A model generated the notes under the pieces. The model was not told the DNA's origin, did not search any database, and saw only the letters and a program-made list of their open reading frames with translations. DNA of 38,743 nt, taken from an uncultured Cellvibrionales bacterium. Its GTDB lineage: Bacteria > Pseudomonadota > Gammaproteobacteria > Pseudomonadales > GM7GCV1. Below are positions 400 to 23,701 of this stretch, one piece after another (the first letter of the stretch is position 1; every line of letters begins with the position of its first letter). The DNA lies in contig CAJXYP010000001.1 of assembly GCA_913063225.1 (NCBI GenBank), forward strand, positions 121,308-160,050, given 5' to 3'. The position numbers and the translations under genes are program-made.

Positions 400-2853
400 A
401 TGTTGTCTTTTAAACAAACATTCTCTTTCTTGATAAAACTTGCTGTTGCTGGCGCTGCAGCTGGCGTTCTCACTGTGGCTGCTGTCTTGATGTACTTGGT
501 GCCCGGGCTTCCATCTGTCGACCAGCTGCGAGACGTACACCTGCAAACTCCGCTGAAGGTATATGCCAGCGGAGGTGAGCTGATTGGAGAGTTTGGCGAG
601 CAGCGCCGTTCTCCAGTAAGTTTTGAGCAAATTCCCGATCATTTTATCAATGCCATTGTTTCCGCAGAGGATGATAGCTTCTTCTCCCACGGAGGGGTGG
701 ACTTAATGGGATTGTTGCGCGCTGCGTCACAAATTGTAACTACAGGCGGAATCCAATCGGGCGGCAGTACTATAACCATGCAGGTCGCTCGCAATTTTTT
801 CTTAAGTCTCGAGCAGACTTTTACCAGGAAATTCAATGAGATTCTGCTCGCTCTTGAGATAGAGCATGAATTATCCAAAGAAGAAATACTAGAGCTTTAT
901 GCCAATAAGATCTACCTCGGTAAACGCGCGTATGGCGTGCAGGCAGCAGCAAATGTCTACTACGGTAAAGATATTGGCGAGCTGGATTTAGCTCAGCTCG
1001 CGATGATTGCAGGTTTGCCAAAAGCTCCAACGGGCTCAAATCCAATAAATAACCCCGAAAGGGCGCTTATTCGAAGAGATTGGATACTGGGCCGAATGCT
1101 GCTGCTGGAGTACATCAATCAAGCTGAGCATGATTCTGCTTTAACACAACCTATTACGGCTTCGTACCACGGTTCTACACTGGCTTTGGACGCTACCTAC
1201 GTTGCCGAGATGGTTAGAGCAGAGATGCTGGATTTATATGGTCAGGAGGCCTATGAGGCTGGCTATGAGGTCACTACGACGGTAGATATCGAGCTTCAGC
1301 GCGCCGCGGACGATTCTGTGGTTTATGGGGTCTTTACCTATGATTTACGCCATGGTTACCGGGGGCCTGAAAAGCGGTTGCCGGAGCCGCTAATGTCGGA
1401 TTCTGCGGCACTTGAGGAGTATATCGATCAGGTCCCTAACCGATCCGGCCTGATGCCTGCAGTTGTATTAGAGTTATTTGAAAAATCCGCAACGCTTATG
1501 GCAAATGGCGGTGCCATATTTAGTTTGGAGTGGACTGATGGTCTCTCGGGGACCAGAAAATACCGAACTGAGAGTTGGCAGGGGGAGTTACCGGATTCCG
1601 CCGAACATCTGCTTGCTGTTGGTGACTTGATACGTTTGCGAGAAGTTGATGGCCGCTGGGTACTTTCTCAGATTCCAGATGTGCAGGCGGGATTGGTCGC
1701 CGTAGACCCACTAAATGGCTCAATCAGGGCGCTTACTGGTGGTTTTGACTTCTATCAGAGTCGCTTCAACCGTATGACTGACGCAAATCGTCAGCCCGGT
1801 TCCAATATGAAGCCGTTTTTGTACGCTGCCGCCCTAGAAAATGGATATACGGCAGCTACCTTGGTGAACGATGCGCCGATAATCTTTGAAGACGCGGCGC
1901 TGGAGGATTTTTGGCGTCCCGAGAATGATTCAGGTATTTTTTATGGTCCGACGCGATTGCGTAAAGCGCTATATTTGTCACGCAACCTTGTGTCCATTCG
2001 GGTTTTACGCGGCTTGGGCATTAATATTGCGCGCGAAGCCATTATTGACTACGGATTTGAGGAGTCGGATTTACCCTACAACTTGACTCTCGCATTGGGT
2101 AGCCAGGGCTTAGAAGCCATAAAGTTAGCAGCGGGATACTCAATTTTCGCTAATGGCGGACATGGTGTAGAGCCATATTTGATATCTGAAATCCGTGATC
2201 GGAACGGCGAAACGCTCTATTTAGCCGATCCCCCAAGCGTATGTCGAGATTGTGATTCGAAGATCGACCAAGGCATACAGGAGGCGTTTCTGGTTGAAGC
2301 GTCTATCCTTCAGGAGCAAATCAACTTATATAGGCCTGAAATCACGGAAGAGGCCCCAAATATCGCCGAGCAAGTGATGGACCCTCGAGTCGCTTACATT
2401 ATGGATTCAATTCTTAGGGATGTGGTTGCGAAAGGAACCGGAACTCGGGCGCAGGTGCTTGAGCGCTCTGATATTGCGGGCAAAACCGGCACGACTAATG
2501 GGCCAAGAGACGCTTGGTTCTCTGGATACAGTCCACATTTGGTAGCTACTGCTTGGGTCGGTTTTGACGACAACGGATTGCTGGGCGCTAGTGAGTTTGG
2601 TGGGTCCGCGGCTTTGCCAATTTGGATCGACTTTATGGAAGTTGCCCTCGAAGGAAAGGCCGATGTATTGCTGCCGCAACCAGAAGGTTTGGTTACGGTG
2701 CTAATTGACCCAGAGACAGGACAAAGAGCGGCTCCCGGGGCTGCAAATGCACAGTTTGAGTTATTTCTAGAAGAGCGTGTGCCGGAATTGTTATCTCAGG
2801 ATAATTTTGAGTCCGGTGAAGACACAGGCAGCGTTACAGATGGATTGTTCTGA
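400..2853 (+). CDS. mrcA: Penicillin-binding protein 1A (bifunctional peptidoglycan synthase)
   Basis: Class A PBP of 817 residues that polymerises lipid II and cross-links peptidoglycan in the periplasm. An N-terminal membrane anchor (about residues 6-32) is followed by a GT51 glycosyltransferase domain with SAEDDSFFSHGG (catalytic Glu90), GGSTITMQVARN and EILELYANKIYLG. After an OB-like insert comes the transpeptidase with the SxxK motif PGSNMKP (Ser468), SRN, and KTGT (Lys695). These positions nearly match E. coli PBP1A (Glu94, Ser473). The ATG at 400 is preferred over the in-frame TTG immediately before it at 397. No clear Shine-Dalgarno precedes it. The gene is divergent from pilM, as in Pseudomonas (ponA). 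All catalytic motifs are intact, and the acidic C-terminal tail is typical. Confidence 0.97.
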   Translation: MLSFKQTFSFLIKLAVAGAAAGVLTVAAVLMYLVPGLPSVDQLRDVHLQTPLKVYASGGELIGEFGEQRRSPVSFEQIPDHFINAIVSAEDDSFFSHGGVDLMGLLRAASQIVTTGGIQSGGSTITMQVARNFFLSLEQTFTRKFNEILLALEIEHELSKEEILELYANKIYLGKRAYGVQAAANVYYGKDIGELDLAQLAMIAGLPKAPTGSNPINNPERALIRRDWILGRMLLLEYINQAEHDSALTQPITASYHGSTLALDATYVAEMVRAEMLDLYGQEAYEAGYEVTTTVDIELQRAADDSVVYGVFTYDLRHGYRGPEKRLPEPLMSDSAALEEYIDQVPNRSGLMPAVVLELFEKSATLMANGGAIFSLEWTDGLSGTRKYRTESWQGELPDSAEHLLAVGDLIRLREVDGRWVLSQIPDVQAGLVAVDPLNGSIRALTGGFDFYQSRFNRMTDANRQPGSNMKPFLYAAALENGYTAATLVNDAPIIFEDAALEDFWRPENDSGIFYGPTRLRKALYLSRNLVSIRVLRGLGINIAREAIIDYGFEESDLPYNLTLALGSQGLEAIKLAAGYSIFANGGHGVEPYLISEIRDRNGETLYLADPPSVCRDCDSKIDQGIQEAFLVEASILQEQINLYRPEITEEAPNIAEQVMDPRVAYIMDSILRDVVAKGTGTRAQVLERSDIAGKTGTTNGPRDAWFSGYSPHLVATAWVGFDDNGLLGASEFGGSAALPIWIDFMEVALEGKADVLLPQPEGLVTVLIDPETGQRAAPGAANAQFELFLEERVPELLSQDNFESGEDTGSVTDGLF

Positions 2854-2881
2854 GCTGAACAATCCCAAAGTGTTTTTGGGA
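2842..2881 (+). terminator. Overlapping hairpins at the 3' end of mrcA (possible terminator)
   Basis: GGATTGTTC (2842-2850) and GAACAATCC (2857-2865) form a perfect 9-bp stem with a 6-base loop that contains the mrcA stop codon. TCCCAAA (2863-2869) and TTTGGGA (2875-2881) form a second 7-bp stem. The two stems share TCC at 2863-2865, so they cannot both form completely. No U-run follows, so intrinsic termination is doubtful; mRNA 3'-end protection is an alternative. Confidence 0.35.
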
Positions 2882-2954
2882 ATGATGAAGTTGGATGAGG
2901 CGTCACTATCAAATTAAATATAGGTACGGTAGTACCAGGACGCCTCGCCCGAAA

Positions 2955-3173
2955 TCAGGATTTACTGCTGACCCGACCGCCAAAGCGCTTATTGAATTTG
3001 TCGATTCGACCGCCAGTATCCATAACCTTTTGCTTACCGGTATAGAACGGGTGGCAGCTTGAGCAAACGTCAATATGAATGTCACCACCGCGAGTGGATT
3101 GGGTCACAATAACGTTGCCACAACTACAGGTGGCTTTCATTTCTTCGTATTTAGGGTGGATATCTGTTTGCAT
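2955..3173 (-). CDS. rpmE: 50S ribosomal protein L31 (zinc-binding form)
   Basis: Protein of 72 residues starting [20 protein letters not shown], a typical L31 sequence. Four cysteines (CSC near residues 16-18 and CSSC near 37-40) make it the zinc-binding C+ type that is replaced by a C- paralogue under zinc limitation in many bacteria. An in-frame ATG lies 15 bases upstream at 3188, but the AAGG ribosome binding site sits inside that extension, 8 bases before the ATG at 3173, so the shorter start is chosen. Divergent from priA with a 92-base spacer, as in Pseudomonas. Because C+ L31 is a zinc store, the putative zinc-type importer elsewhere in the window is worth noting, but no Zur-type site was seen here. 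Confidence 0.96.
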
Positions 3174-3265
3174 GGTGTGCGCCTTCAATGTTGTCGTGCC
3201 GCCGTCCCATTTTCAGGGTACGGCACCGTAGCGTGCGGAAAAGAGCGCGCATACTATCAGAATAA

Positions 3266-5437
3266 ATGACGATGACAAGTAACTCATACTGGCGTATTGC
3301 CCTGCCCTGCCCGCTTCGACGCCTTTTCACCTACTCTGCCACAAAAAATTTGACGCTAGAAGCCGGTGATTGGGTGCAAGTACCCTTTGGAAATAGAAAG
3401 GTAGTGGGCCTGGTTCTTGAAGCTACGGAAAAGCCGAGAGTCGATTACCAGATTAAAGAAGTTGCTGAGGTTGTGCGCAAAGAATTGCAGCTGCCAAGGT
3501 CCATTGTCGCCCTGATTTTATGGAGTATGCGTTATTACCATGCCGCTCCATGGGACATAGTTTCTACCTTTGTTCCTGGGTATATTCTTCAGGGGAAAAC
3601 TCCCGAAGCCGAACCGGTATGGTTTGTTCGTGAGGACGCTGCTGCGAAAGTCTCTGCTCGCGCCCGCCGGCAAAAGGAGCTAATCGAGTGGCTAGGGGAA
3701 AGCGGACCCAGCGATAGCGGTAGCATTGTTTTCGCGGGTTTTTCGCGAGCGTTGATTCGACAGCTAAGGGACGCTAATGCGATCGAGGCTGCTGAAGCAG
3801 AACAGCAGCATGCGCCACCCTTAACTAAATCTGAACTACTGCAACCCACCTCAGACCAAAGCGCTCTAATTGATCAGGTTAGCCAAGAAGGCAGTGGTAC
3901 CTATTTACTGGAGGGTATAACGGGCAGCGGTAAAACTTTGGTATATCTACATCTCGCCCGTGAGCAGTTAAAGCAAAACAAGCAGGTGCTAATTCTGGTC
4001 CCAGAAATTGGATTGGTGCCGCAAATGCTGGAGCACTGCCGGCAACTAGTCGAACAACCCTTTTGTTATCACAGCGGCATGACAGATTCTCAGCGTGCAG
4101 AAACTTGGTTGGCCTGTTTGCAGGGGCGGGCACAACTGATAATCGGTACTCGATCGGCATTATTTCTCCCTTTCGAAGCGCCGGGCATGATCGTTGTAGA
4201 TGAGGAGCATGACGCTTCTTACAAGCAGCAGGAAGGCATGCGATATCACGCGCGTGATATCGCTGTGATTAGAGCCTCGAAAATGGGTATCCCCATTATT
4301 TTGGGTAGTGCGACACCATCTTTAGAAAGCCTCTACAACGCAAAGCGCGATAACTTTACGCACCTAGGTTTGAATAAGCGGGTAGCGGGTGGTGAGATAC
4401 CCAAATGGAAGGTATTGGAGGGTCGTGCACCCATCGAAAATACGGGATTGCTGCCAGAGTCGCTAAATTCTATCCAGGCGCATCTATCGGCAAATCAGCA
4501 GGTTCTAGTTTTTATCAATAGACGTGGTTACGCGCCATGCCAGCGATGCAGCCAATGCGGATGGCAGGCCAGTTGCGATAGCTGTGATTCTAGATATACC
4601 TATCACAAGAGTTTTAATGAGCTGAGATGTCATAGATGCGATATACGTCGTGCGGTGCCAACGCAATGCCCGGTCTGCGCCAGCCAGCAGTTGCTATTTT
4701 TGGGGCAGGGAACCGAGCGAATTGCCCAGAAACTATCAGAATTTTTCCCTGATGTGCCAGTTATCCGAGTTGACCGAGATGCGACCAAGGGAAAACAAGG
4801 TATGCAGCGCAAGCTAGACGAGGTACACGCATCGGGCGCGGCGATTTTGGTAGGTACGCAGATGCTAGCCAAGGGCCATCATTTTCCTAACCTATCCATG
4901 GCGCTTATTTTGGATATAGATTACGCGATGATGAGCGCGGATTTTCGAGCGACTGAGCAAGGCATGCAGTTAATAACTCAGGTTGCAGGTCGCACCGGCA
5001 GAGAAAGTGGCGGTGGCGAAGTTGTCTTACAAACAGAATACGCTAGCCATCCCATGTTGGTTGATCTGGTTTCCAACAAATATGCGCATTTTGCAGAAGA
5101 GCTTTTGCTGCAGCGACGGGAATTGTCCCTACCGCCCTATTGTTACATGGCCATTTTACGAGCTGAATCGGAAGACTACCGACTCGCTCTTGGTTTGTTA
5201 CAAGATAATCTAAAGGCGGTGCAGCGCTCGGGGCTATATGATTGCCAAATAATTGGGCCCAGTCCATCGCCGACAGAAAAACGTGCTGGGCGCTATCGCT
5301 TTCAGACCCAAATTACGGCGGGCGCTCGCTCCAATCTTCACAAACTATTGAGCTTTGTAGTCGCTGACTTAGATAGCAGAAGACATAATAAGAAACTTCG
5401 CTGGCATTTAGATATTGATCCAATAAGCTTGGATTGA
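3266..5437 (+). CDS. priA: Primosomal protein N', replication restart helicase PriA
   Basis: 723-residue superfamily 2 3'-5' DNA helicase that recognises stalled forks and reloads DnaB. The N-terminal 3'-DNA-binding domain (YWRIALPCPLRRLFTYSA) is followed by Walker A GITGSGKT (residues 217-224), the DEEH box (312-315), and GSATPSLES. The zinc-binding insertion has paired cysteines (CQRCSQC, CDSCDS, CHRCD, CPVC), and the C-terminal helicase motif VAGRTGR is present. Length matches the family (about 730). Starts at ATG 3266; a second in-frame ATG follows two codons later. argS, which often follows priA in Pseudomonas-type genomes, is not here; a SPOR protein comes next. Confidence 0.97.
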   Translation: MTMTSNSYWRIALPCPLRRLFTYSATKNLTLEAGDWVQVPFGNRKVVGLVLEATEKPRVDYQIKEVAEVVRKELQLPRSIVALILWSMRYYHAAPWDIVSTFVPGYILQGKTPEAEPVWFVREDAAAKVSARARRQKELIEWLGESGPSDSGSIVFAGFSRALIRQLRDANAIEAAEAEQQHAPPLTKSELLQPTSDQSALIDQVSQEGSGTYLLEGITGSGKTLVYLHLAREQLKQNKQVLILVPEIGLVPQMLEHCRQLVEQPFCYHSGMTDSQRAETWLACLQGRAQLIIGTRSALFLPFEAPGMIVVDEEHDASYKQQEGMRYHARDIAVIRASKMGIPIILGSATPSLESLYNAKRDNFTHLGLNKRVAGGEIPKWKVLEGRAPIENTGLLPESLNSIQAHLSANQQVLVFINRRGYAPCQRCSQCGWQASCDSCDSRYTYHKSFNELRCHRCDIRRAVPTQCPVCASQQLLFLGQGTERIAQKLSEFFPDVPVIRVDRDATKGKQGMQRKLDEVHASGAAILVGTQMLAKGHHFPNLSMALILDIDYAMMSADFRATEQGMQLITQVAGRTGRESGGGEVVLQTEYASHPMLVDLVSNKYAHFAEELLLQRRELSLPPYCYMAILRAESEDYRLALGLLQDNLKAVQRSGLYDCQIIGPSPSPTEKRAGRYRFQTQITAGARSNLHKLLSFVVADLDSRRHNKKLRWHLDIDPISLD

Positions 5438-5523
5438 AAGTAAACGGTGGTTGTTAACACCCCCTAGTTTCGATTCTCGGAGCGAAGAGCTAGAATGAGC
5501 CTATCTATCGAGCAGTGATACCT

Positions 5524-6036
5524 ATGTCAAAGTCTGCATCCCGCGGTGCTTCAAAAAAAACCTCCGAAATTCAGCATAGCCAGGGATCCGGACTTCTGGT
5601 TACTGGTTTTGTATTGGGAATTCTTGCGACATTAGGTGGGCAATGGTTATTGCGATCGGGCTTCACCGGAAATAATTTGCCAGACCAAGACATTGCTGCG
5701 GTAGACGCAGGAGATGAATTCGAGTTCTACACTTTGTTGGGAAATATGGAGGTGGAAGTTCCCGAAGCGAGCATGGTTAATGTCGAAGATGATGATGTGA
5801 TTTACTGGTTACAGGCTGGCTCATTTCGCGCTCCTGATGATGCAGAAAGCATGCGAGTAAGCCTTCTTTTAAAAAATATGGAGGCCGAAGTAAAGCCGTT
5901 TAGTCATCAGGGAATTATTTGGCATCGGGTCATTGCCGGACCCTTTCAAACCAAAACAGTAATGAACAAGGCTAAGCAAGATCTGATCCAGGAGGGAATG
6001 CCCTCCATTACACTTAGACAAAATCCGTTCGAATAA
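5524..6036 (+). CDS. SPOR-domain inner-membrane protein (FtsN-like)
   Basis: 170-residue protein with a short basic cytoplasmic head (MSKSASRGASKK), one transmembrane helix (about residues 24-46, GLLVTGFVLGILATLGGQWL), an acidic linker, and a C-terminal SPOR domain (about 98-165, from WLQAGSFRAPDDAES to VIAGPFQTK). SPOR domains bind denuded septal glycan, so a role in cell division is likely. The gene sits where the FtsN-like protein lies downstream of priA-argS in Pseudomonas. An in-frame GTG at 5515 is a possible earlier start; ATG 5524 is preferred because homologues begin with a similar short basic stretch. It is shorter than E. coli FtsN (319 residues) and lacks an obvious essential-segment match, so it is called FtsN-like without a symbol. 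Confidence 0.85.
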   Translation: MSKSASRGASKKTSEIQHSQGSGLLVTGFVLGILATLGGQWLLRSGFTGNNLPDQDIAAVDAGDEFEFYTLLGNMEVEVPEASMVNVEDDDVIYWLQAGSFRAPDDAESMRVSLLLKNMEAEVKPFSHQGIIWHRVIAGPFQTKTVMNKAKQDLIQEGMPSITLRQNPFE

Positions 6037-6063
6037 ACTCCAGACAACCGCTGATAGATTTCC

Positions 6064-6501
6064 ATGAATGATGAAGTAAATTCCAATGAATCCAAAACTC
6101 CGGATGCAGATACCAAAGTTCCCAGTAAAATAGCTGTGCACGATCAAGGCCGGGCGATGCACCTTGAATACGACGATGGACTATCGGCGACTCTGAAAGC
6201 TGAATATTTGAGAATCGAAAGCCCCAGCGCTGAGGTTAAGGGGCATGCTGGTGTTGGCGGGACCTTACCCACGGGCAAGCGGCATGTAAAAATTACTGCG
6301 GTAAAGCCGGTCGGCTATTACGCCGTAGCTATCCACTTCGATGATGGTCACGACTCCGGCATCTACACATGGGAACACTTGCGTCACTTGATACGCCAGG
6401 AAAAAAGGTTGTGGGCGGACTACGAAAAAAAGCTGCGTGAACAAGGCGCAGGCAGGGAGCCTGATGTGCAGATAATTCGAATGATGGATCCGCCAAAATA
6501 G
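6064..6501 (+). CDS. DUF971 family protein (gamma-butyrobetaine hydroxylase-like N-terminal domain)
   Basis: 145 residues. After a polar 30-residue head, residues 33-125 match the DUF971 fold: LEYDDGLSATLKAEYLRIES, then HVKITAVKPVGYYAVAIHFDDGHDSGIYTWEHL. The pattern of FxDGHxSGIYxWxxL is the family signature. DUF971 occurs as a stand-alone protein and as the N-terminal part of gamma-butyrobetaine hydroxylases; its stand-alone function is not established. In Pseudomonas this gene follows hslVU; here it follows the SPOR gene by only 27 bases, so the protease genes are missing from the interval. Probably cotranscribed with the SPOR gene. Confidence 0.88.
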   Translation: MNDEVNSNESKTPDADTKVPSKIAVHDQGRAMHLEYDDGLSATLKAEYLRIESPSAEVKGHAGVGGTLPTGKRHVKITAVKPVGYYAVAIHFDDGHDSGIYTWEHLRHLIRQEKRLWADYEKKLREQGAGREPDVQIIRMMDPPK

Positions 6502-6518
6502 GAGCCGCTAGGCTTTTC

Positions 6519-7061
6519 TTAGTATCCTAAAACACTAATAGAAAATATCGCAAAAGCTGTCCCTAATGCAGCTCCTGCCAATATGTCCGATACAAAGTGA
6601 ACCCGAAGAAATACGCGGGAAACGCCAATAGATGAAGCCCACATATACATAAGTAGCGTCGCCCCCGGGAAGAAATGGCTGACGATATAGGCCATTAAGA
6701 AGCCGCCGGCAGTGTGCCCGGAGGGAAAGCTGAATTCATCGGAAGGATCATGAATGCGCTCTAGGCGTTCAACCACTAAGTAAGGACGGCGGCGCTTAAA
6801 TGTCTTTTTGAGAATTGCGTAGGTAGGCAGCTCAAACGCAAATGCCAGAAAGCCGCATAAGGTAACGGCCAAGCCCGCCTCTGGAGAAAAAATCAAGAGC
6901 ACTGCCGCGACGATTAGATATGCGTAGCCGTCGCCAGTAAAGGAAACTGCTCGAGCAATCTTGTATAGGCGCAGGCGTTCTTCCATAAGCCCCATAAAGA
7001 CGTACAGCCGAGCATCAATCTCGGCGAGTAGTTTCATGGCTGCGCTTTTCGGTTCTTTCAT
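6519..7061 (-). CDS. PAP2-family membrane phosphatase
   Basis: 180-residue integral membrane protein with the three PAP2 motifs: KKTFKRRRP (KxxxxxxRP), FPSGH (PSGH), and SRVFLRVHFVSD (SRxxxxxHxxxD) containing the nucleophilic His. Four or more hydrophobic segments alternate with these loops. Family members dephosphorylate undecaprenyl diphosphate, phosphatidylglycerol phosphate or phosphatidic acid; the sequence alone does not decide the substrate. It is convergent with the DUF971 gene (17-base gap) and divergent from the Tag-like gene. ATG 7061 is used; an internal ATG eight codons in would also give a complete protein. Confidence 0.9.
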   Translation of the reverse strand: MKEPKSAAMKLLAEIDARLYVFMGLMEERLRLYKIARAVSFTGDGYAYLIVAAVLLIFSPEAGLAVTLCGFLAFAFELPTYAILKKTFKRRRPYLVVERLERIHDPSDEFSFPSGHTAGGFLMAYIVSHFFPGATLLMYMWASSIGVSRVFLRVHFVSDILAGAALGTAFAIFSISVLGY

Positions 7062-14557: not shown

Positions 14558-15505
14558 CTATAAGCTGGGCAGGGCTGAAATTAGCTGGGCCAGATTTTCC
14601 GTCGCTATGACATTAATGTCTGCAGTTGAGGTTTCAAAGGTATTCAACACAACCAATCTGCTTCCACCGGCTTGAATAGCAGCCTGAATGGTCTCAGACG
14701 GTTCCCATTTGTGGATCACGATGGGGATACCCCCCTCTTTAAGCGTCACTGTTAACTGGGCTAGATCATCTTCAGTCCAATTAATATCCTGCTTAACAAA
14801 ATAGTCTTCGACGTAAATACCGTATTCCGTAGTGAGATAGGAAAACTCGTCCGCCAATGCGTATATATAGGGATCTGTGCTGACTAGGGCGACTTCAAAA
14901 TCTCTTTTCTGAGCTAATAATTCCGCAGAGATTTGCTGTTCATTCATTCGTATGATTTCCGCTGACTCCGGGAAGAGACGAGCTAAATCATTGGAGATGA
15001 TTTTCGCCGAGCGAATGATATTGGCCGGGCTCAACCAAAAATATGGTGATGCTTCGCCGCTTGAAGGTGAATTCACAACGGAGACGCCGGTTAGCTGTGA
15101 AGAGTAGGGTAGCGTCGCGTCTATATTAACCACACCAATATTGTGTTCTCGAACCGTTAGGTACAAAGAATCGTAGCGCCAAAGGTTGCCCATACTGACT
15201 ACGGCGTCAGCTTGCTCAAAGGTTTCGTAAAAAGGTTCAGATTGCTTTGCCAGCCAAGTGGGCTGAGCCGCCAGGGAGCGGGCTCTGTCCGGCATATTTA
15301 GAACTTCTACCCCTGTTCCTTCGACTAGCGCACTGGTGATGCTGTAGATAGGGCCCACTGAGGTCAAAACAATATTGCTCTGATGTTCAGGCATGCCTTC
15401 TTCTTGAGTATCGACTTGTACATTGATGCAGGAAGTTAAAAGCACGCAGGAAGCTAGAAGTGCCATCTTGGCCAATAAAGTCGAGCGCCCTAATACCAGC
15501 AGCAT
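14558..15505 (-). CDS. Lipoprotein of ZnuA-like solute-binding fold lacking canonical metal ligands
   Basis: 315 residues with a signal peptide and lipobox LLTSC, followed by an Asp/Gln-rich linker. The fold pattern of cluster A-I metal-binding proteins is visible (VLTSVGPIYSITSALVEGTG, FEQADAVVSMG, SPYFWLSPANI, IPIVIHKWEPSETIQAA). The usual ligand positions are changed: the DPHxYxPxPxD histidine region reads MPDRARSLAAQPTW, and the NPHxWLDP region reads SPYFWLSP. It is therefore a degenerate or repurposed paralogue of the ZnuA-like protein at the other end of the ABC block. It is coupled to the permease by a TAATG overlap and is the last gene of the cluster. It may be an accessory or bind a different ligand; inference only. 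Confidence 0.78.
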   Translation of the reverse strand: MLLVLGRSTLLAKMALLASCVLLTSCINVQVDTQEEGMPEHQSNIVLTSVGPIYSITSALVEGTGVEVLNMPDRARSLAAQPTWLAKQSEPFYETFEQADAVVSMGNLWRYDSLYLTVREHNIGVVNIDATLPYSSQLTGVSVVNSPSSGEASPYFWLSPANIIRSAKIISNDLARLFPESAEIIRMNEQQISAELLAQKRDFEVALVSTDPYIYALADEFSYLTTEYGIYVEDYFVKQDINWTEDDLAQLTVTLKEGGIPIVIHKWEPSETIQAAIQAGGSRLVVLNTFETSTADINVIATENLAQLISALPSL

Positions 15506-16407
15506 TATATTTTTGCCTCTCTAAATTGAGGCATAAAGCCGCGCATTAGGCTGGTGATAAGGAAGAAACAGGCGGCACATAGAATAATTGCACCACCGGA
15601 AGGGATGGGAATGTCGAACTGCATAGGAATAATAATGCCCATCAAACAACTTGAAACTGAGAAAATTACACTCCAGAGCATGAAGCCGCCTAGAGAGCGG
15701 TTTAGATTTCTAGCCGCTGCCGCAGGAATCAGTAGTAATGCCTCAACCAGCACAGCTCCAATAATCTTCACGCAAGCGACGGTGACAACCGTAATCATCA
15801 GCACAAATATGTATTCCATTAGCTGAACCTTAACGCCCCTTACATGGGCTAGTGCCGGGTTCAAGCTGGATAACAACATGCGGTTAAAAAGTGGTATTCC
15901 TGTTGCCAGCACCAGCACGGATACAAAGAACAAAACACTTATATCCAACTGGTTAACGGTGAGAATAGAACCAAACAGAATGCTCTCTAGTATGTGAGTA
16001 TTCACTTTTGCTGAGATGAACAGGAGCAGAGAGGCTCCAAGCGCAAGAGAGATCGAAAGGAATACACCAATCAAGGTGTCAGATGCCATTTTTGTATGGT
16101 TTCTGGTGAAATTCAGCAGCAGTGCAAAGAGAATACAGAAGGAGAACATTGATATATAAGGAGAGGTATAAGACTCACCTATAAGCACGCCAATTGCCAC
16201 ACCAGTTAGCGCCGCGTTGCCTACTGCCTGAGAGAAAAATGCCATGCGTTTTGCCACTACCATGGTACCAAGGGCACCAAGTACGGGGCCGATTATCAGC
16301 GCACAAATAACGGCGTTAAATACAAATTCATAGTAGAGCGCCCAGGGCACTATGCCGCGGCCAGCCATCATCATGATTTCTTGTTGAAAACCCTCTAAAC
16401 CCATCAT
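15505..16407 (-). CDS. Metal ABC transporter permease (ZnuB-like, ABC-3 family)
   Basis: 300-residue membrane protein with about eight hydrophobic helices and family segments ALGTMVVAKRMAFFSQAVGN, ALTGVAIGVL and VKIIGAVLVEALLLIPAAAA, which are hallmarks of ABC-3 permeases for zinc and manganese. The ATG overlaps the ATPase stop by four bases (ATGA), and its own stop overlaps the next gene by TAATG. It is longer than E. coli ZnuB (261), the extra length being a 35-residue N-terminal segment. Substrate is inferred from the family as a divalent metal ion. Confidence 0.92.
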   Translation of the reverse strand: MMGLEGFQQEIMMMAGRGIVPWALYYEFVFNAVICALIIGPVLGALGTMVVAKRMAFFSQAVGNAALTGVAIGVLIGESYTSPYISMFSFCILFALLLNFTRNHTKMASDTLIGVFLSISLALGASLLLFISAKVNTHILESILFGSILTVNQLDISVLFFVSVLVLATGIPLFNRMLLSSLNPALAHVRGVKVQLMEYIFVLMITVVTVACVKIIGAVLVEALLLIPAAAARNLNRSLGGFMLWSVIFSVSSCLMGIIIPMQFDIPIPSGGAIILCAACFFLITSLMRGFMPQFREAKI

Positions 16408-17132
16408 GCGGCTTCTCCGGATACTTTGATTGAGGGTGGAGACCCTGCGCGGAAATTCCCGTGCATCATAGGTTCAGTAAGTATTTCGTTGGTAGGACCA
16501 CTAGCGATGACTTCGGTGTCTATCACCGTCACTCGAGTTGAAACGCGTTTTACCTGCGCCATATCGTGGTTTACCCATAATAGAGTTTTACCTCTAGCTG
16601 TGAGGTCCTGAATTAGGTCTTCAAATATGGTAATGCCAGCTTCGTCCAAGCTGGTCATTGGTTCATCAAGCACTACCAAGGAAGGCTCGGGTATAAGGGC
16701 TTGGGCAAATAACAGTCTTTGCCGCTCGCCACCGGATAGGTTACCGATCATGGTTTTTTCCTTGCCATTTAGCTTAACTATGTCCAAGGCGGCTGCAACG
16801 GCCTCCCTGTATTTCTTTCTAAGGCCCAAAAACGCCGGAGTATTTTGGCAAACCATGGTCATAAAGTTATTTACGGTAACTGGTAATGTTTTATCAAAAT
16901 CCAAAAATTGAGGCACATACCCAATGCATTTATTTTCGCCCCACTCAAATTGAATATCGCCCGTGTGAGGCATTTGTCCAAGGATGCAGCGCAGGGTAGA
17001 TGTTTTCCCGCCGCCGTTTGGACCAACAATGCAGTGCACTTCACCAGGCTTTGCCAGCATATTTATATTGCTAAGAATGGTGGAATTTCCGAGGGATAGC
17101 CCTAGGTTTAATACACTAATTTTGGGACCCAT
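16404..17132 (-). CDS. Metal ABC transporter ATP-binding protein (ZnuC-like)
   Basis: 242 residues with a complete nucleotide-binding domain: Walker A VGPNGGGKTST, Q-loop in YVPQFLDFDKTLPVTV, signature LSGGERQRLLFAQAL, Walker B LVVLDEPMTSLDE and H-loop VNHD. The sequence style (FDKTLPVTVNNFM) is that of zinc/manganese importers. Its ATG overlaps the stop of the binding-protein gene as TAATG. It powers import through the adjacent permease on the cytoplasmic face. Confidence 0.94.
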   Translation of the reverse strand: MGPKISVLNLGLSLGNSTILSNINMLAKPGEVHCIVGPNGGGKTSTLRCILGQMPHTGDIQFEWGENKCIGYVPQFLDFDKTLPVTVNNFMTMVCQNTPAFLGLRKKYREAVAAALDIVKLNGKEKTMIGNLSGGERQRLLFAQALIPEPSLVVLDEPMTSLDEAGITIFEDLIQDLTARGKTLLWVNHDMAQVKRVSTRVTVIDTEVIASGPTNEILTEPMMHGNFRAGSPPSIKVSGEAA

Positions 17133-18049
17133 TAGCTGTCGGCCTCCTCTGAGCTATTAAGTGATGCACTGAATTCCAGCGCTCGTCGCAGTTCTTCAAT
17201 ATTGCGTCGCATGTCGACTTCAAAATGCTCAGCTGAATAATCACCATCGGAGATATGAGAGAAGGAGTAAATTTTTACACCTGTCTCGTCTTCAATGGTG
17301 TCTGCCAATTTACTGGCGAAATACTGTTCTGCAAAAAGCACGGTTACGCCGGTGGCGTTGATCTCATCGATGGTCCCAGCCAACTGTCTAGCCGTGGGCT
17401 CAACGCCATGCCGTGGTTCAACTACAGCAGATATTTGCAATCCGAATTCTTGCATCAGGTAGCCATAGGCGCCGTGCATTGTTGCTGCTTTAAAATTTGT
17501 CGAATCAAGAGCAGCGATATCGGGCATGTACTCAGCCTTAATGCTGCGCAGGTGCTTTGCATATTTGCGAGCATTGGAACGATAAAAATCTTCGTTCTCA
17601 GGGTCCAGTGCTCCTAGGCCTTTTGCGATTTCATAAACTTGGGCAATAGCCGCCGTCGTTGAAATAAAAGTATGTGCATTTACGGATTGGTCGTTGCCGG
17701 AAACAGGCATTAGGGCCACTGCGTTATTTGCATAAATTTTTGGCAGATCATCCCCCCGACCCGCAGCTTGCAGGATTTCGAAGGCCCATTCGTCGTGACC
17801 AATGCCGTTCACTACAACAACGTCGAGCTCGAATGCACGCTTTATGTCAGCTGGTTGTGGGGAATAGCCGTGGGGGTTATACCCGGAATCGATTAATGGC
17901 TGGATGTCTGCCCGGTCCTGCACGATATTAGCCACGAAACTATAGTAGGGATGCAGGGTAACGCCGATATTCAGACGAGCGCAGGCGCTCAGGGGCAGCA
18001 AGCTAAGGCTTACTAAAACGAGGGTCGGTAAAAAACCTTTTTTCAACAT
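17132..18049 (-). CDS. ZnuA-like metal-binding periplasmic protein
   Basis: 305 residues from ATG 18049, chosen because MLKKGFLPTLVLVSLSLLPL is a typical signal peptide start; in-frame starts at 18070 (ATG) and 18091 (TTG) only add a polar extension. The signal ends in LSAC, which could be a lipobox, or in ACA for signal peptidase I. Metal ligands of the cluster A-I family are kept: NPHGYSPQPADI, NAHTF, TMHGAYGYL, and an acidic residue in FAEQYF. It lacks the His-rich loop of classical zinc-type ZnuA. It delivers metal to the permease encoded two genes downstream. Zinc or manganese is most likely, but the sequence does not settle which. Confidence 0.9.
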   Translation of the reverse strand: MLKKGFLPTLVLVSLSLLPLSACARLNIGVTLHPYYSFVANIVQDRADIQPLIDSGYNPHGYSPQPADIKRAFELDVVVVNGIGHDEWAFEILQAAGRGDDLPKIYANNAVALMPVSGNDQSVNAHTFISTTAAIAQVYEIAKGLGALDPENEDFYRSNARKYAKHLRSIKAEYMPDIAALDSTNFKAATMHGAYGYLMQEFGLQISAVVEPRHGVEPTARQLAGTIDEINATGVTVLFAEQYFASKLADTIEDETGVKIYSFSHISDGDYSAEHFEVDMRRNIEELRRALEFSASLNSSEEADS

Positions 18050-18092
18050 GGCTTCATAATTCCAATTCATAGTGCTAATAAATAGCCCCAAT

Positions 18093-18731
18093 TTAAAGAC
18101 CGGTGCCTTTCAGGCGTTCAAGTTCATCGCGACCGGAGTAAGGCACTACATTCATCCATCCTTCCAATACAAGGGACTGAGTTTTAGAAGTTACGGGCAT
18201 GTCTTGCTCCGGGTTTTCGTGAATCCAAATGGTGTTGTGGTTCGACATAGTATTGCCAGCGTGCAGATGCCCAATAACCACGATATATGCGCTTTGATTC
18301 TCGGCGGTGCCCATATTGCCGTGATAAAGGGTATAGCCCTGCATCTCGCCTTCTTGAACCACATCGCGGTAATCCCATTGCACAGAGCCGGTATTGGCCC
18401 AAGAGATATCTTTAACGAAGGGAGGGACCAAATACTCCTCCAAGTCGGTGATGTTTGGCCAAGGGCCGATTTCGTATTGAATCCAGCCGATATCTTCTTG
18501 TGCGGTATAGAGCGCGCTATATATCGCTTGGTCAGCTTCGCTAAGATCACTAAAAGAGCTTACTTGCCAGGACTGCAGCTCTTGGGTCGAACCTTCCTGC
18601 CCGTATTTCAATACATAAGAACCCGTTGCCGCTAACAGGCCAATTACTCCCGCTAGCAAGATAAACAGCTCCCATCTGCTAGAGCTAGGTTTAACAATGG
18701 AAGCGCTAACCACTCTATTTTTGGTGCTCAA
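18093..18731 (-). CDS. Membrane-anchored His-rich periplasmic protein of metal-transport cluster (possibly DUF6162)
   Basis: 212 residues, TTG start that overlaps the preceding stop as TTGA; a GTG six codons later is an alternative. One transmembrane helix (about residues 22-43, LFILLAGVIGLLAATGSYVL) leaves a large periplasmic domain. Its most striking part, around residues 153-175, is GHLHAGNTMSNHNTIWIHEN, with four His in 17 residues, plus an earlier YHGN, all plausible metal ligands. I recall an uncharacterised family of this type (DUF6162) next to zinc ABC transporters in Pseudomonas, but cannot confirm membership. It lies between the DUF4198 genes and the binding protein, so a metal hand-over or assembly role is inferred. 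Confidence 0.65.
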   Translation of the reverse strand: MSTKNRVVSASIVKPSSSRWELFILLAGVIGLLAATGSYVLKYGQEGSTQELQSWQVSSFSDLSEADQAIYSALYTAQEDIGWIQYEIGPWPNITDLEEYLVPPFVKDISWANTGSVQWDYRDVVQEGEMQGYTLYHGNMGTAENQSAYIVVIGHLHAGNTMSNHNTIWIHENPEQDMPVTSKTQSLVLEGWMNVVPYSGRDELERLKGTGL

Positions 18732-19603
18732 AGGTCTCTGCCTGCGGATGTCAGGGGTACATTCTCAGCGTAGATCCACAGAATGGCGTCTTGAGATATA
18801 TAGATATCCTCGTATCGAATTTCCGGGCCAGTCCCCAGTGCAGCGATAGCCCACCAGCCGGCGGCGGGGATACCGAAATGGAATTCGCCATTTTCGTTAG
18901 TGATCATGGATATGTATTTATAGCTTGGGTGGGTAGCGGCTATATAGGGCACCTCTGAGAAGCGTGCGTTTTCTGCATCTACCGCGTAATTAAGGTAGTC
19001 GATTTCGAGTCGTGCGAAGGGAACCGGGTAGCCATCTGAGTAGACAATGCCGCTAAAGGTTTCCCCAACCCAATTTGCGTAGGGAGTTTTAAGCGCCTGA
19101 ATTTCTGTAGGTAAGCCAAGCGTTGAAAACCAATTGGTCTGACCGCCGCCGACATTAACAATCAGCTTAACGAACTGTTGTATATAGATTTCGTCGTTAA
19201 CATCGTAATAGGGTTCCGTAACGACGACAAACTGGTGGTCGCCCAGAGATCTAATCTGGTCTCTTGCTATACTCGCAGAGAAAGCATCAACGCGCACTTC
19301 TTCGCCATTTGCATCGATACGGTTCAACCATTGAACGGACTCAAGATTGTCCATCAGATCAGTTTCTTCCATACGGATGCTCCGGCCGGAATGCTGTGTG
19401 AAGGACTGTATCTCCATCGGCATCGTCGGGCCGCCATCGGTGGCATGAGTAAAGACGATGGACATTTCAACATCTGTAGCGCGATCCAGAGCCATGTTTT
19501 CTGTATATATGATCGTAGTGTGTGCACTAAGACTGCCGGAGACCATGCCGCAAACAACGGTGGTCAGCAGTAGGCGATTGTGAATTTGTTTGCCAATGAA
19601 CAT
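18728..19603 (-). CDS. DUF4198 / NikK-like secreted metal-uptake protein, copy 1
   Basis: 291 residues with a signal peptide ending GSLSA before HTTIIYTENM, so the mature protein would begin with His. The family core is visible: MSIVFTHATDGGPTM, a long beta-rich middle (EIYIQQFVKLIVNVGG), and a carboxypeptidase-regulatory-like beta-sandwich at the C-terminus (FSGIVYSDGYPVPFARLEID, then FGIPAAGWWAIAALG). DUF4198 proteins accompany nickel/cobalt and other metal transporters and are thought to be periplasmic metal-binding components. It is clearly paralogous to the next gene upstream (19630-20454). Its stop overlaps the start of the following membrane protein. Confidence 0.85.
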   Translation of the reverse strand: MFIGKQIHNRLLLTTVVCGMVSGSLSAHTTIIYTENMALDRATDVEMSIVFTHATDGGPTMPMEIQSFTQHSGRSIRMEETDLMDNLESVQWLNRIDANGEEVRVDAFSASIARDQIRSLGDHQFVVVTEPYYDVNDEIYIQQFVKLIVNVGGGQTNWFSTLGLPTEIQALKTPYANWVGETFSGIVYSDGYPVPFARLEIDYLNYAVDAENARFSEVPYIAATHPSYKYISMITNENGEFHFGIPAAGWWAIAALGTGPEIRYEDIYISQDAILWIYAENVPLTSAGRDL

Positions 19604-19629
19604 CTAATTTCCCGACTTGGTTAAATTAC

Positions 19630-20454
19630 CTAGTTAATCTCTTTTGCTTGAACCCAGAGTACCGCATCTTGCGAAAGCTCTTTGCCCTCATGCTCGGTGG
19701 CTGGGCCAACGCCAAGTGCAGCAATGCCCCACCAGCCAGCTTTGGGCAGGCCAATCGAGAAGGTTCCACTAGCGTCTGTGCGAACACTTACATGCTCATA
19801 TCCCGGAAGAGGCGCCTCAATGCTGGCATCAGCATCAAATCGTCGGTCTTCAAAATTTGGATTGTAATTCAGGTATTCCACTTCGATTTCAGCGAAAGGA
19901 ACCGGCTCTCCGGAAGAAAGTACAACACCACGAAATACTCCACCGACCCAGTTTGTGTAGGGTTTGTTTAATGACTGTATTTCTGTAGCTAGACCTAAAG
20001 TCGCATCCCAATTTGTTGGTGCGCCGCCGACATTCATAATCACCTTAGTGATTTGCTGAATATAGATGTCTTCTTCCGCTTCGTAGTAAGGCTGAGGTTC
20101 TACAACAACCTGATAGTCGCCTAAAGATCGCATTGCGTTTCTGGGAATGGCTGCGACAAACGCGCTTTTGCCTTCTGCATGACCCCATTGAACAGGCTCT
20201 AGGTAATCCATTAAATCAATGCGAGTTAAATCATCATCGCCCGCTTTTTTCTGCATGGCATAGAAGTTTTCAATACCTGGTAGATCCATCGTTGGGCCGC
20301 CATCAAAGGCGTGAGTAAAGACAATAGACATATCTATGTTGGCGCTGCGGCCAAGTAGCATTTCAGGTGTGTGTACCACTAAGAAGTGCGCCGATGTCGT
20401 GGCGGACGCGGTTAGCAAAATAGCCGTCGAAAAAAGTGCTCTTACTAAATTCAT
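19630..20454 (-). CDS. DUF4198 / NikK-like secreted metal-uptake protein, copy 2
   Basis: 274 residues; signal peptide ends TTSA before HFLVVHTPEM, again giving an N-terminal His on the mature protein. It shares with copy 1 the blocks MSIVFTHA-DGGPTM, IYIQQ, TNWVGG/E, PVPFAEIEVEYLNY and GWWGIAALGVGP, so the pair arose by duplication, although they are now quite divergent. Predicted periplasmic metal-binding accessory of the downstream ABC importer. Copy 1 starts 26 bases after its stop. Confidence 0.86.
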   Translation of the reverse strand: MNLVRALFSTAILLTASATTSAHFLVVHTPEMLLGRSANIDMSIVFTHAFDGGPTMDLPGIENFYAMQKKAGDDDLTRIDLMDYLEPVQWGHAEGKSAFVAAIPRNAMRSLGDYQVVVEPQPYYEAEEDIYIQQITKVIMNVGGAPTNWDATLGLATEIQSLNKPYTNWVGGVFRGVVLSSGEPVPFAEIEVEYLNYNPNFEDRRFDADASIEAPLPGYEHVSVRTDASGTFSIGLPKAGWWGIAALGVGPATEHEGKELSQDAVLWVQAKEIN

Positions 20455-20508
20455 TTGTTCTCCAATTACCTTTGTATCTTCATCGTTCTAAATTTGTGAT
20501 CAGGAGGC

Positions 20509-20811
20509 CTAGTAAATTTCATCACCGAAAAGAACAATCTCGTGCCCTTCACCTGCTTCGAAATAAACCGAATATTCCTCATCTGGGATATCAAAGGTAT
20601 AACTGCTAGCTTCATCTAACTGCCCCTGCATTAAAACGCGGCCGCTGGCTAGTTCAACTCGAATGCCAACACCAGCTGCTGGGCCACCGTCAGAAAAAGC
20701 CCCTTCACAGGTCGCCGTGCTGTCACCGTTGTCGAAACAATCAAACAGGGGTGAATGTGCTGCTGCGGGCAGGCTCAGCATTAAAGCGGCCAGTGCTATT
20801 GAATTTTTCAT
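20509..20811 (-). CDS. Small secreted protein, first gene of the metal-uptake cluster
   Basis: 100 residues. Signal peptide MKNSIALAALMLSLPAAA, predicted mature start HSPLFDCFDNGDSTATCEGA, with two cysteines that could form a disulphide. The rest (about residues 45-100) looks like a small beta-sandwich of the carboxypeptidase-regulatory type (GVGIRVELASGRVLMQGQLD, YTFDIPDEEYSVYFEAGEGH). This resembles the small NikL-like partners found with NikK, but that is a shape comparison rather than a confirmed family. A good AGGAG ribosome binding site lies 7 bases before the ATG. It heads the run of eight same-strand genes, so the operon promoter should lie upstream, between 20812 and about 21000. Confidence 0.75.
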   Translation of the reverse strand: MKNSIALAALMLSLPAAAHSPLFDCFDNGDSTATCEGAFSDGGPAAGVGIRVELASGRVLMQGQLDEASSYTFDIPDEEYSVYFEAGEGHEIVLFGDEIY

Positions 20812-21176
20812 TTCAGTACTCCTGAAGCTATTTAGTGTCAGTAAACCTTGAACATGCGCAGTCTACTAGATGCTTAACCGACCTTTGGATAGAGTAACGC
20901 AAGTTAACAGTTGCTAAACACTGTGGAGATAGTTGTAAGTTGTTGATTTAACAAAAGCTTGATGTCGCTCACACTTTTAGAGGCAGAAGTGCATTTTATG
21001 AGGTATTGATGGTGTCTGAACGTGACCCAGTTCCGAAAACCTTCTATTAGAAGGCCTAAAGTTGGACCTCCCCTGAAGAGATTCTACATCCCCCTTGAAT
21101 GATCTCTCTCTTACGGCATCTTCGGATGTCGTCTTTTTTCCTGCATTTTATTACAGGCCCTAATCATCCTAGTGTT
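20812..21176. other. 365-base intergenic region: operon leader and orphan plus-strand terminator
   Basis: The region separates the metal-uptake operon (reading left) from the end of uup, also on the minus strand. It contains inverted repeats TTGTT-GATTT-AACAA (20940-20954) and ACAGT-TGCTAAAC-ACTGT (20907-20924), both possible operators for the operon. There is also a plus-strand hairpin CCTTCT-ATT-AGAAGG (21040-21054), and a strong plus-strand terminator at 21113-21139. A 13-codon open frame (ATG 21009, stop TAG 21048-21050, GAGG five bases upstream) lies between them. No Zur, Fur or NikR consensus and no known riboswitch was recognised, and no convincing sigma-70 promoter could be picked by eye. 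Confidence 0.5.
21113..21139 (+). terminator. Intrinsic terminator with C(UUCG)G tetraloop, plus strand
   Basis: ACGGCATC (21113-21120) pairs with GATGTCGT (21125-21132), eight base pairs with one G-U, closed by a cUUCGg tetraloop. One C then six T follow at 21134-21139. On the minus strand the hairpin has no U-run and a CGAA loop, so the signal works in the plus direction. No plus-strand gene lies upstream for several kilobases. Confidence 0.8.
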
Positions 21177-23287: not shown

Positions 23288-23701
23288 ATGAAATTATTAA
23301 AAGCACTAAAAGAGTTCAAAATTTTTCAGCGTCGCGATGGTCGGTATGCGGTTAAAACCCGTAAAGGCCGCCCAGTTAATGCTGATGAAAAAATTGCGGT
23401 TTTGATTGGCGAAGGCTTAATTGCCGCGCCTGAGCCGAAACCACAGCCTGAAGCTGTTGAAGAAACAGTAGAGGAAGCGGTAGCTGAAGAAGCACCAGCA
23501 GAAGAAGCTCCGGCTGAAGAAGTAGCAGAAGAAGCTCCGGCTGAAGAAGTAGCAGAAGAAGCTCCGGCCGAAGAAGTTGCAGAAGAAGCTCCAGCGGAAG
23601 AAGCTCCAGCGGAAGAAGCTCCAGCGGAAGAAGCTCCAGCGGAAGAACTAGCCGAAGAGCCATCAGCGGATGAAGAGTCTCCAGAAGAAGACAAGAAATA
23701 G
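23288..23701 (+). CDS. Small protein with basic head and acidic EEAPA-repeat tail, unknown function
   Basis: 137 residues. The first 45 (MKLLKALKEFKIFQRRDGRY, then AVKTRKGRPVNADEKIAVLI) are basic and look like a small folded domain. The remainder is low complexity: eight EEAPA units interspersed with EEVA/EELA, ending in an acidic EESPEEDKK tail. The product would be strongly bipolar in charge. No signal peptide or membrane helix is seen. AAGGTGAG precedes ATG 23288, and a strong terminator follows, so it is a single-gene transcription unit divergent from uup. I do not recognise a functional family. Long frames on the opposite strand across the repeat are artefacts of the repeat composition. 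Confidence 0.8.
   Translation: MKLLKALKEFKIFQRRDGRYAVKTRKGRPVNADEKIAVLIGEGLIAAPEPKPQPEAVEETVEEAVAEEAPAEEAPAEEVAEEAPAEEVAEEAPAEEVAEEAPAEEAPAEEAPAEEAPAEELAEEPSADEESPEEDKK
23486..23653 (+). repeat. In-gene tandem repeats of 15-bp and 27-bp units
   Basis: GAAGAAGCTCCAGCG-type 15-mers encode EEAPA: eight copies in all, of which four are consecutive at 582-641 past 23000 (23582-23641). Between them, 12-mers such as GAAGAAGTAGCA encode EEVA, so three EEAPA-EEVA units of 27 bp run in tandem at 23501-23581. All units are multiples of three, so copy-number change would keep the frame. Confidence 0.9.

What the first reader, a model, noticed from the sequence alone, without database searches (positions are those of the whole stretch)
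14558..20811. Eight-gene metal-uptake operon coupling DUF4198 proteins to a ZnuABC-type importer
Seen: eight same-strand genes, the last five joined by TTGA, TAATG or ATGA overlaps or short gaps. They combine a complete ABC-3 metal importer, two DUF4198/NikK-like secreted proteins, a small secreted protein, a His-rich membrane protein and a second binding-protein-like lipoprotein. Known: DUF4198/NikK proteins usually accompany ECF-type nickel/cobalt transporters, whereas ZnuABC normally acts with one binding protein. Inference: a composite importer in which periplasmic accessory proteins capture or hand over metal to the ABC core. I know of no described system with this exact set.
Basis: partly seen in the sequence, partly recalled or inferred. 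Interest (0 to 1): 0.7.

Follow-up and report, generated by a model that had tools for sequence, protein, structure and literature searches.

The report
Pyoverdine-type importer with nickel-carrier proteins
A marine bacterium carries an eight-gene metal-uptake operon whose core matches the iron-release importer of the Pseudomonas pyoverdine pathway, but in place of that system's reductase it has two secreted proteins of the kind that serve nickel and cobalt importers.

Summary
The eight genes are real and read as one operon. They are not a ZnuABC system. Six of them match, in order, fpvJKCDEF, part of the P. aeruginosa pyoverdine iron-release machinery (fpvGHJKCDEF), which already has an ABC-3 core with two binding proteins. 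The first binding protein is FpvC-like (280 bits to PDB 6r3z; next family about 90). What differs: the reductase FpvG and partner FpvH are missing, and two DUF4198 proteins sit between J and K. Among 37 loci of the family I found three architectures: I, PepSY reductase; II, PepSY2-DUF2271-DUF4198; III, DUF4198 without those upstream genes (the window kind). Type III rows fall together in a tree of C+D+E, and their DUF4198s group with those of Ni/Co ECF importers, not with type II. FpvJ itself is NikL-like. So type III looks like a NikK/NikL carrier pair attached to an Fpv-type ABC importer. No Fur-like site was found before it (0 of 7 type III regions; 11 of 22 type I/II regions). Nickel or cobalt is my leading substrate, iron close behind; neither is shown. 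New variant of a known kind.

The parts
20509..20811 (-). FpvJ/NikL-like small secreted protein (100 aa), mature N-terminus predicted His19, conserved Cys25/Cys35
   Evidence: NCBIfam NikL model 4.9e-12, below cut-off; 12 of 12 aligned family members match that model at 0.01; His column 37 of 37
19630..20454 (-). DUF4198 protein a (NikK lineage), predicted mature His1 (H23) and conserved His (H48)
   Evidence: PF10670 5.3e-45; 40-46% identity to four DUF4198 proteins that I checked to lie beside cbiM in Rhodobacterales; tree
18728..19603 (-). DUF4198 protein b, paralogue of a, predicted mature His1 (H28) and conserved His (H53)
   Evidence: PF10670 3.9e-36; tree
18093..18731 (-). FpvK-like inner-membrane protein (DUF6162), TTG start, with the HLHAG...NHNTIWIH histidine stretch
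   Evidence: PF19659 1.4e-13; alignments
17132..18091 (-). FpvC-like metal-binding protein; H74, H99, H140, H206, H228, H279 conserved
   Evidence: PDB 6r3z 280 bits; His counts
16404..17132 (-). FpvD-like ATPase
   Evidence: PF00005; 48% to the Pseudomonas-type gene L047
15505..16407 (-). FpvE-like ABC-3 permease; the only ABC-3 permease found in this genome
   Evidence: PF00950
14558..15505 (-). FpvF-like second binding lipoprotein without the metal-binding histidines
   Evidence: PF01297 4.9e-16; 0 of 6 FpvC His positions are His in the window protein in a joint alignment
20895..20912 (-). AACTGTTAACTTGCGTTA, block shared upstream of the operon by the three species of the genus; possible regulatory site, no known match
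   Evidence: alignment

Best explanation
The operon encodes an FpvCDEF-family divalent-metal importer in which NikK-lineage DUF4198 proteins take the place of the reductase part. Proposed mechanism: secreted DUF4198 a and b, and perhaps FpvJ, hold a divalent metal at their mature N-terminal histidine (plus the conserved second His in DUF4198); FpvJ/NikL-like and FpvK dock them to the inner membrane; the metal passes to the all-histidine site of the FpvC-like protein; FpvD/FpvE pump it in. The FpvF-like lipoprotein holds no metal by the canonical site and probably binds a metal-chelate or acts as a scaffold. With no reductase in the operon and no Fur-like site found, a metal that needs no reduction is favoured: nickel or cobalt first (about 0.45), ferrous iron second (about 0.3), zinc or another metal the rest. 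Shown here: homology, gene order, clade structure, conserved histidines. Inferred: hand-over route and metal.
For: J-K-C-D-E-F order shared with Pseudomonas-like, Azospirillum, Shinella, Cereibacter and Vibrio loci; the Pseudomonas-like FpvC of L047 scores 525 bits to PDB 6ru4 and its cluster has the published order; type III rows form one group in the C+D+E tree; type III DUF4198s share a starred group with four ECF-associated ones, apart from type II; published IsDUF4198 binds Ni2+ with Kd 18 nM through its N-terminal His and a second His (PMC12537917, passages); all five gamma-proteobacterial type III FpvK rows carry a HxHAG...IWxH motif, against 0 of 23 type I/II rows and not L018; 0 of 7 type III upstream regions have a Fur-like site at p<0.05 against 11 of 22 type I/II regions; G000 has a Ni superoxide dismutase but no CbiM/NikM; G609 carries both a type I and a type III cluster, which suggests different substrates.
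Against: The FpvC histidines are the same in types I, II and III, so the metal could be the same, i.e. iron. The two other species of the genus have the operon but no Ni superoxide dismutase. One type III locus (L053) has a PepSY gene downstream. G000 has a PepSY next to a TonB receptor elsewhere, and no FeoB above cut-off, so it may need this importer for iron; that TonB/PepSY pair has no Fur-like site by my scan either, so the scan can miss iron genes in G000. G001 and G002 have a second, weaker FUR-family protein, which could be a Zur. The type III branch has 66/98 support. The DUF4198 of L018 is on a long branch. The second DUF4198 His is at mature position 26 here, not 18 as in IsDUF4198, and I did not show that they are equivalent. 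NiCoT, HupE, ZIP and NRAMP carriers were not searched.
Confidence: 0.6

Rival explanations
1. It is an iron importer like Fpv: a TonB receptor and the PepSY protein encoded elsewhere (G000 contig 7) release and reduce siderophore iron, and this operon carries Fe2+ across the inner membrane, with DUF4198 as a periplasmic Fe2+ carrier.
For: Homology of the six-gene core to the iron system; same FpvC histidines; PepSY beside a TonB receptor in G000; FeoB above cut-off in only 1 of the 3 species with the operon (G001); a PepSY gene downstream of type III locus L053; DUF4198 of another lineage belongs to Fur-regulated or iron-responsive clusters (PMC3751524, PMC7190382, passages).
Against: No Fur-like site upstream in any of the three species, though the same scan finds one before a TonB gene of G002 (15/19, reached in 0 of 300 shuffles); DUF4198 lineage is that of Ni/Co importers; reductase not in the operon; G001 has FeoB together with the operon.
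Confidence: 0.3
2. It is the cell's zinc (or manganese) importer, a divergent ZnuABC with accessory carriers.
For: It holds the only ABC-3 permease found in G000, so no other Znu system was seen; the SBP site is all His; G001 and G002 have a second FUR-family protein that could be Zur.
Against: Scores far under the NCBI ZnuA, ZnuB, ZnuC cut-offs; no Zur-like site better than shuffles; only one FUR-family protein in G000; the sister genus G003/G004 has no ABC-3 permease at all; two binding proteins and accessory genes match Fpv instead.
Confidence: 0.15
3. The genes are chance neighbours and the DUF4198 pair has no role in the importer.
For: Gaps of 54 and 26 nt before the tightly overlapped part leave room for separate units.
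Against: DUF4198 lies in the same cluster in all 6 type III loci, with two different gene orders; no terminator-like site lies in those two gaps.
Confidence: 0.03

Closest known systems
Pseudomonas aeruginosa fpvGHJKCDEF (pyoverdine iron release and uptake)
   Same: Genes J, K, C, D, E, F in the same order; FpvC-like protein with the same conserved His; second binding protein without the metal site
   Different: No FpvG reductase or FpvH in the operon; two DUF4198 genes between J and K; extra His motif in K; no Fur-like site found
NikKMLQO nickel/cobalt ECF importers
   Same: DUF4198 (NikK) of the same lineage and a NikL-like small secreted protein, both with predicted mature N-terminal His
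   Different: No NikM/CbiM (0 of 5 genomes of the family); the membrane engine is an ABC-3 importer with a binding protein
PepSY_TM_like_2-DUF2271-DUF4198 iron-reduction clusters (Caulobacter CC3059-63, Alteromonas), here found joined to J-K-C-D-E-F as type II
   Same: A DUF4198 gene next to FpvJ and the same ABC core
   Different: Those DUF4198s are a separate deep branch, come with DUF2271 and mostly a PepSY2 gene, and 5 of 10 upstream regions tested have Fur-like sites
ZnuABC zinc importer
   Same: ABC-3 permease, ATPase and cluster A-I binding protein
   Different: Below the curated cut-offs; second binding protein and four accessory genes

Membership tests
Fpv system (fpvGHJKCDEF) | FpvC-type binding protein with its conserved histidines | tested here: met
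   280 bits to PDB 6r3z; H74, H99, H140, H228, H279 in 38 of 38 and H206 in 37 of 38 rows
Fpv system (fpvGHJKCDEF) | FpvD/FpvE ABC-3 core and FpvF second binding protein in the order C-D-E-F | tested here: met
Fpv system (fpvGHJKCDEF) | FpvJ and FpvK homologues upstream | tested here: met
   J 29-37% and K 25-27% to the type I members L047, L014, L011 (the K match to L011 spans only 44 aa), same positions
Fpv system (fpvGHJKCDEF) | FpvG (PepSY) reductase and FpvH in the cluster | tested here: not met
   absent from the window operon; one PepSY match elsewhere in the genome
Fpv system (fpvGHJKCDEF) | acts on ferri-pyoverdine or another siderophore | not testable with these tools
   no call bears on it
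NikKMLQO ECF importer | NikK-lineage DUF4198 | tested here: met
   tree; identities
NikKMLQO ECF importer | NikL | tested here: inconclusive
   46 bits to NF058648 with a cut-off of 100
NikKMLQO ECF importer | NikM/CbiM core component | tested here: not met
   0 of 5 genomes
ZnuABC | ZnuA, ZnuB, ZnuC above the NCBI equivalog cut-offs | tested here: not met
   61 against 268, 101 against 284, 114 against 306 bits
ZnuABC | Zur control | tested here: inconclusive
   no Zur-like site better than shuffles in the three species; one FUR-family protein in G000, but two each in G001 and G002

The most novel reading that the evidence does not exclude
NikK and NikL are a portable periplasmic metal-carrier pair, with the metal held at the mature N-terminal histidine, that evolution attaches to unrelated membrane engines: ECF (NikMQO), the Fpv-type ABC-3 importer (this operon), and perhaps a third ABC type (Paracoccus locus L112). 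The window operon would be the first nickel or cobalt importer of the Fpv family and would give orphan NikK/NikL genes a home; FpvJ of the pyoverdine pathway, of unknown function, would be a metal carrier of the same kind.
Probability: 0.35. Interest if true: 0.68.

Novelty: new variant of a known kind. Interest (0 to 1): 0.52.

Why it matters
A 2009 survey reported orphan NikK and/or NikL genes in genomes without NikMQO and could not find what they serve (PMC2667541, passages); the roles of FpvJ and FpvK are unknown in the 2020 paper (PMC6954188, discussion read). This operon ties both questions together and makes them testable: does a NikK/NikL-type pair load the FpvC-type protein, and with which metal? 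It also bears on annotation: records label such binding proteins 'zinc ABC transporter substrate-binding protein', although the nearest characterised relative serves iron.

Tried and rejected
Rejected: ZnuABC membership (NCBI cut-offs). Rejected: DUF4198 taken over from the type II iron clusters; the tree puts them on a separate deep branch. Tried without result: Fur- and Zur-consensus scans upstream of the operon; Rfam over the window (0 hits); sigma-70 and terminator scan, within the range of shuffles; AlphaFold2 of mature DUF4198a with five sequences, mean pLDDT 46, not used further; PDB search with the DUF4198 profile gave 9mhk/9mhi under an odd molecule name (60 bits) and a weak NikK hit, 9gcb, at E 0.63. 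A DUF6162 match in G397 had none of the other genes around it (L012) and was dropped. The Pfam DUF6162 model finds few relatives (4 of 95 genomes; 2 of 370), so I counted with FpvC instead. The Ni-SOD test did not co-vary: 1 of 3 operon-bearing species of the genus, 1 of 7 genomes in all. The FeoB test was mixed: above cut-off in G001 only, of 7 genomes; matches below the cut-off are short and cover mostly the GTPase part, and I read them as absence; draft genomes (86-100% complete) weaken this. Literature: searches for DUF6162 (0 papers), DUF4198 + zinc + ABC transporter (2), DUF4198 (10 held, 9 listed), fpv gene names (9), FpvC or 6R3Z (99, mostly unrelated, 30 listed), FpvJ (13), PepSY/DUF2271/zinc ABC (9 held, 7 listed), NikK/NikL (382 loose hits, 20 listed) showed no title or abstract start describing DUF4198 joined to an Fpv-type ABC importer. 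I opened nine papers: passages of eight (PMC4176598, PMC3751524, PMC12537917 with its outline, PMC11870441, PMC8238504, PMC10826366, PMC7190382, PMC2667541) and, of PMC6954188, the first fifth, passages and the discussion. So this is not proof of absence.
Full report
What is there. In transcription order they are: a 100-aa secreted protein; DUF4198 a; DUF4198 b; a membrane protein of family DUF6162 with one hydrophobic stretch near its start; a ZnuA-type binding protein; an ATPase; an ABC-3 permease; and a second, weaker ZnuA-type lipoprotein. The genome is a draft (G000, 2.26 Mb, 32 contigs; 96.8% complete). The nearest named relatives found are a Porticoccaceae MAG and an uncultured Cellvibrionales MAG, whose contig lengths equal those of the G002 and G001 loci. 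Both congeners have the same set; in G002 it is split over two contigs that together hold all eight, in G001 the last gene is cut by the contig end.

What it is related to. The first binding protein matches PDB 6r3z/6ru4, 'Probable adhesion protein', with 280 bits (and 6r6k, a histidine-poor variant of the same chain, with 253), while the next PDB sequence has 90.5 bits. That this PDB name is P. aeruginosa PA2407 = FpvC is my recollection. What the calls show is that a locus of family f21 (L047; Pseudomonas is my inference) scores 525 bits to the same PDB chain, and that its gene order PepSY - unknown - J - K - C - D - E - F equals the published fpvGHJKCDEF (PMC6954188). The window proteins are 57% (permease), 50% (FpvC), 48% (ATPase), 32% (FpvF), 35% (FpvJ) and 27% (FpvK) identical to those of L047. 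So six of the eight genes are fpvJKCDEF homologues in the same order. In plasmid-collection records the same cassette stands in Cereibacter, Azospirillum, Shinella and Vibrio, where the annotated records call the first binding protein 'zinc ABC transporter substrate-binding protein'.

How common. With a profile of FpvC-like proteins, 21 of 390 genomes of the order and 13 of 397 of the phylum have a match at 1e-45 (the two samples overlap). The 22 places in the order sample fall into 11 type I, 6 type II and 5 type III. Altogether I compared 37 loci of this family, from both samples, the plasmid records and the named MAGs: FpvJ is seen in 36 of 37, the exception (L009) being cut by the contig end, with its FpvJ on another contig (L092); FpvF in 36 of 37, the exception (L059) also cut by a contig end; a DUF6162 match in 29 of 37. 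The three architectures are I: PepSY reductase (with or without an FpvH-like gene) - J - K - C - D - E - F, 17 loci, none with DUF4198; II: PepSY_TM_like_2 - DUF2271 - DUF4198 - J - K - C - D - E - F, 14 loci (in L062 the PepSY2 match lies at the other end, in L063 none was seen); III: J and one or two DUF4198 with K - C - D - E - F, 6 loci (window, L005, L009, L053, L061, L018; DUF4198 in all 6). Pfam confirmed the type II domains in representatives.

Type III is a lineage. In a tree of FpvC+D+E, built without DUF4198, the six type III rows are one side of a branch (66 bootstrap / 98 SH-aLRT; one change in all 200 bootstrap trees), with I and II needing two changes each. The outgroup is very distant and the root is not reliable. 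One genome, G609, has a type I cluster (L050) and a type III cluster (L061).

Where the DUF4198s come from. In a quick tree of 32 DUF4198 proteins the 14 type II proteins form one deep branch. The ten type III proteins share a starred group (98) with four DUF4198s encoded next to cbiM in Rhodobacterales; nine of the ten form their own starred subgroup (96), and the tenth, from L018, is on a long branch. One of those four ECF clusters also carries cobO, cobW and cobN; a more distant ECF member stands beside nikR and urease genes. FpvJ matches the NCBI NikL model in 12 of 12 members tested, from all three types, at E 0.01 or better; the window member scores below the curated cut-off. The pair DUF4198 + FpvJ therefore resembles NikK + NikL of the NikKMLQO importers (PMC2667541, passages).

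A shared chemical feature. At the predicted signal-peptidase site these proteins read A|H: the His column is filled in 37 of 37 FpvJ-like rows (36 of the 37 loci plus L092) and 31 of 31 DUF4198 rows that have an N-terminus (the truncated L009 row has none). I judged the cleavage site by the motif, not by a predictor. A second His (H48 in a, H53 in b) is kept in 29 of 31 and in all 15 rows of a hand-chosen alignment. The N-terminal His of DUF4198 is already published: 79% of the family have it, and IsDUF4198 binds Ni2+ (Kd 18 nM) through it and His18, with Zn2+ and Co2+ also stabilising (PMC12537917, passages). The second His is at mature position 26 here, so I cannot say that it is the same residue. 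That FpvJ has the same N-terminal feature I did not find stated in what I read. FpvC keeps H74, H99, H140, H228, H279 in 38 of 38 rows and H206 in 37 of 38; the window FpvF-like protein has none of these in a joint alignment. FpvK of the five gamma-proteobacterial type III rows has HxHAG...IWxH; 23 type I and II rows and L018 do not; type I and II rows often have histidines at their C-terminus instead.

Which metal. For iron: the core is that of an iron system, FpvC histidines do not differ between types, G000 has no FeoB above cut-off and has a PepSY beside a TonB receptor elsewhere. Against iron: no reductase in the operon, and no Fur-like site: 0 of 7 type III regions (six loci) against 5 of 10 type II and 6 of 12 type I regions at p<0.05 by dinucleotide shuffles (p-values not corrected, loci not independent, not every locus tested). 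An earlier mononucleotide test gave a like picture. A TonB gene of the congener G002 does have a Fur-like site (15/19), so the consensus can work in the genus; but three other control regions, the TonB and PepSY genes of G000 and the first gene of the G002 cluster L091, show none, which weakens the argument. For nickel/cobalt: DUF4198 lineage, NikL-like partner, Ni superoxide dismutase in G000 with no CbiM/NikM. Against: the congeners lack Ni-SOD. For zinc: the operon holds the only ABC-3 permease found in G000, and G001/G002 have a second FUR-family protein; against it, the sister genus has no ABC-3 permease at all. I put nickel/cobalt at about 0.45, iron 0.3, the rest zinc or other.

Regulation. 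The three congeners share an 18-base block AACTGTTAACTTGnGTTA, 84-101 nt upstream of the start codon in the window, that matches neither Fur nor Zur; no Rfam element lies in the window.

Conclusion. It is a variant of the Fpv importer family in which NikK-lineage proteins replace the reductase part. Substrate and hand-over remain to be tested.

Noticed in passing
L112 (Paracoccus liaowanqingii plasmid), 1862-6962: DUF4198 - unknown - ATPase - ABC permease - ZnuA-like binding protein - DUF4198 - FpvJ-like (22 bits): a NikK/NikL-like pair with what seems a third kind of ABC importer.
   Followed up: partly
L091 (congener G002, contig 94), 241-7260: A small cytochrome-like protein, DUF4198 near the type II branch, an EF-hand-like protein, ApbE+DUF2271 fusion, a TonB-receptor-like protein and PepSY2 in a row, with a Fur-like site (15/19) before the TonB gene. 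In G000 the only DUF4198 matches are the two of the window.
   Followed up: partly
G000 contig 19, 37900-38280 (L119): Ni superoxide dismutase with a signal-peptidase-like gene beside it; not found in the six other genomes searched, congeners included.
   Followed up: partly
L061, 1636-5513: Directly upstream of the type III cluster in G609, same strand: DUF6152 (mature N-terminus seems to read HH), an alpha/beta hydrolase, and two membrane proteins, one of which matches DUF6644 and CopD. Proteins that look like DUF6152 by eye also occur in L119 and L120 of G000.
   Followed up: no
window 23288-23701: Protein with a tail of EAPAEE repeats encoded by overlapping 15/27-bp tandem repeats; the congener G002 has a similar gene on contig L092.
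   Followed up: no
L018 (NZ_CP084075.1): A 2.1 Mb record listed as a Fusobacterium plasmid, of chromosome size, with a type III-like cluster holding two FpvC-like genes, one lacking a conserved His.
   Followed up: no
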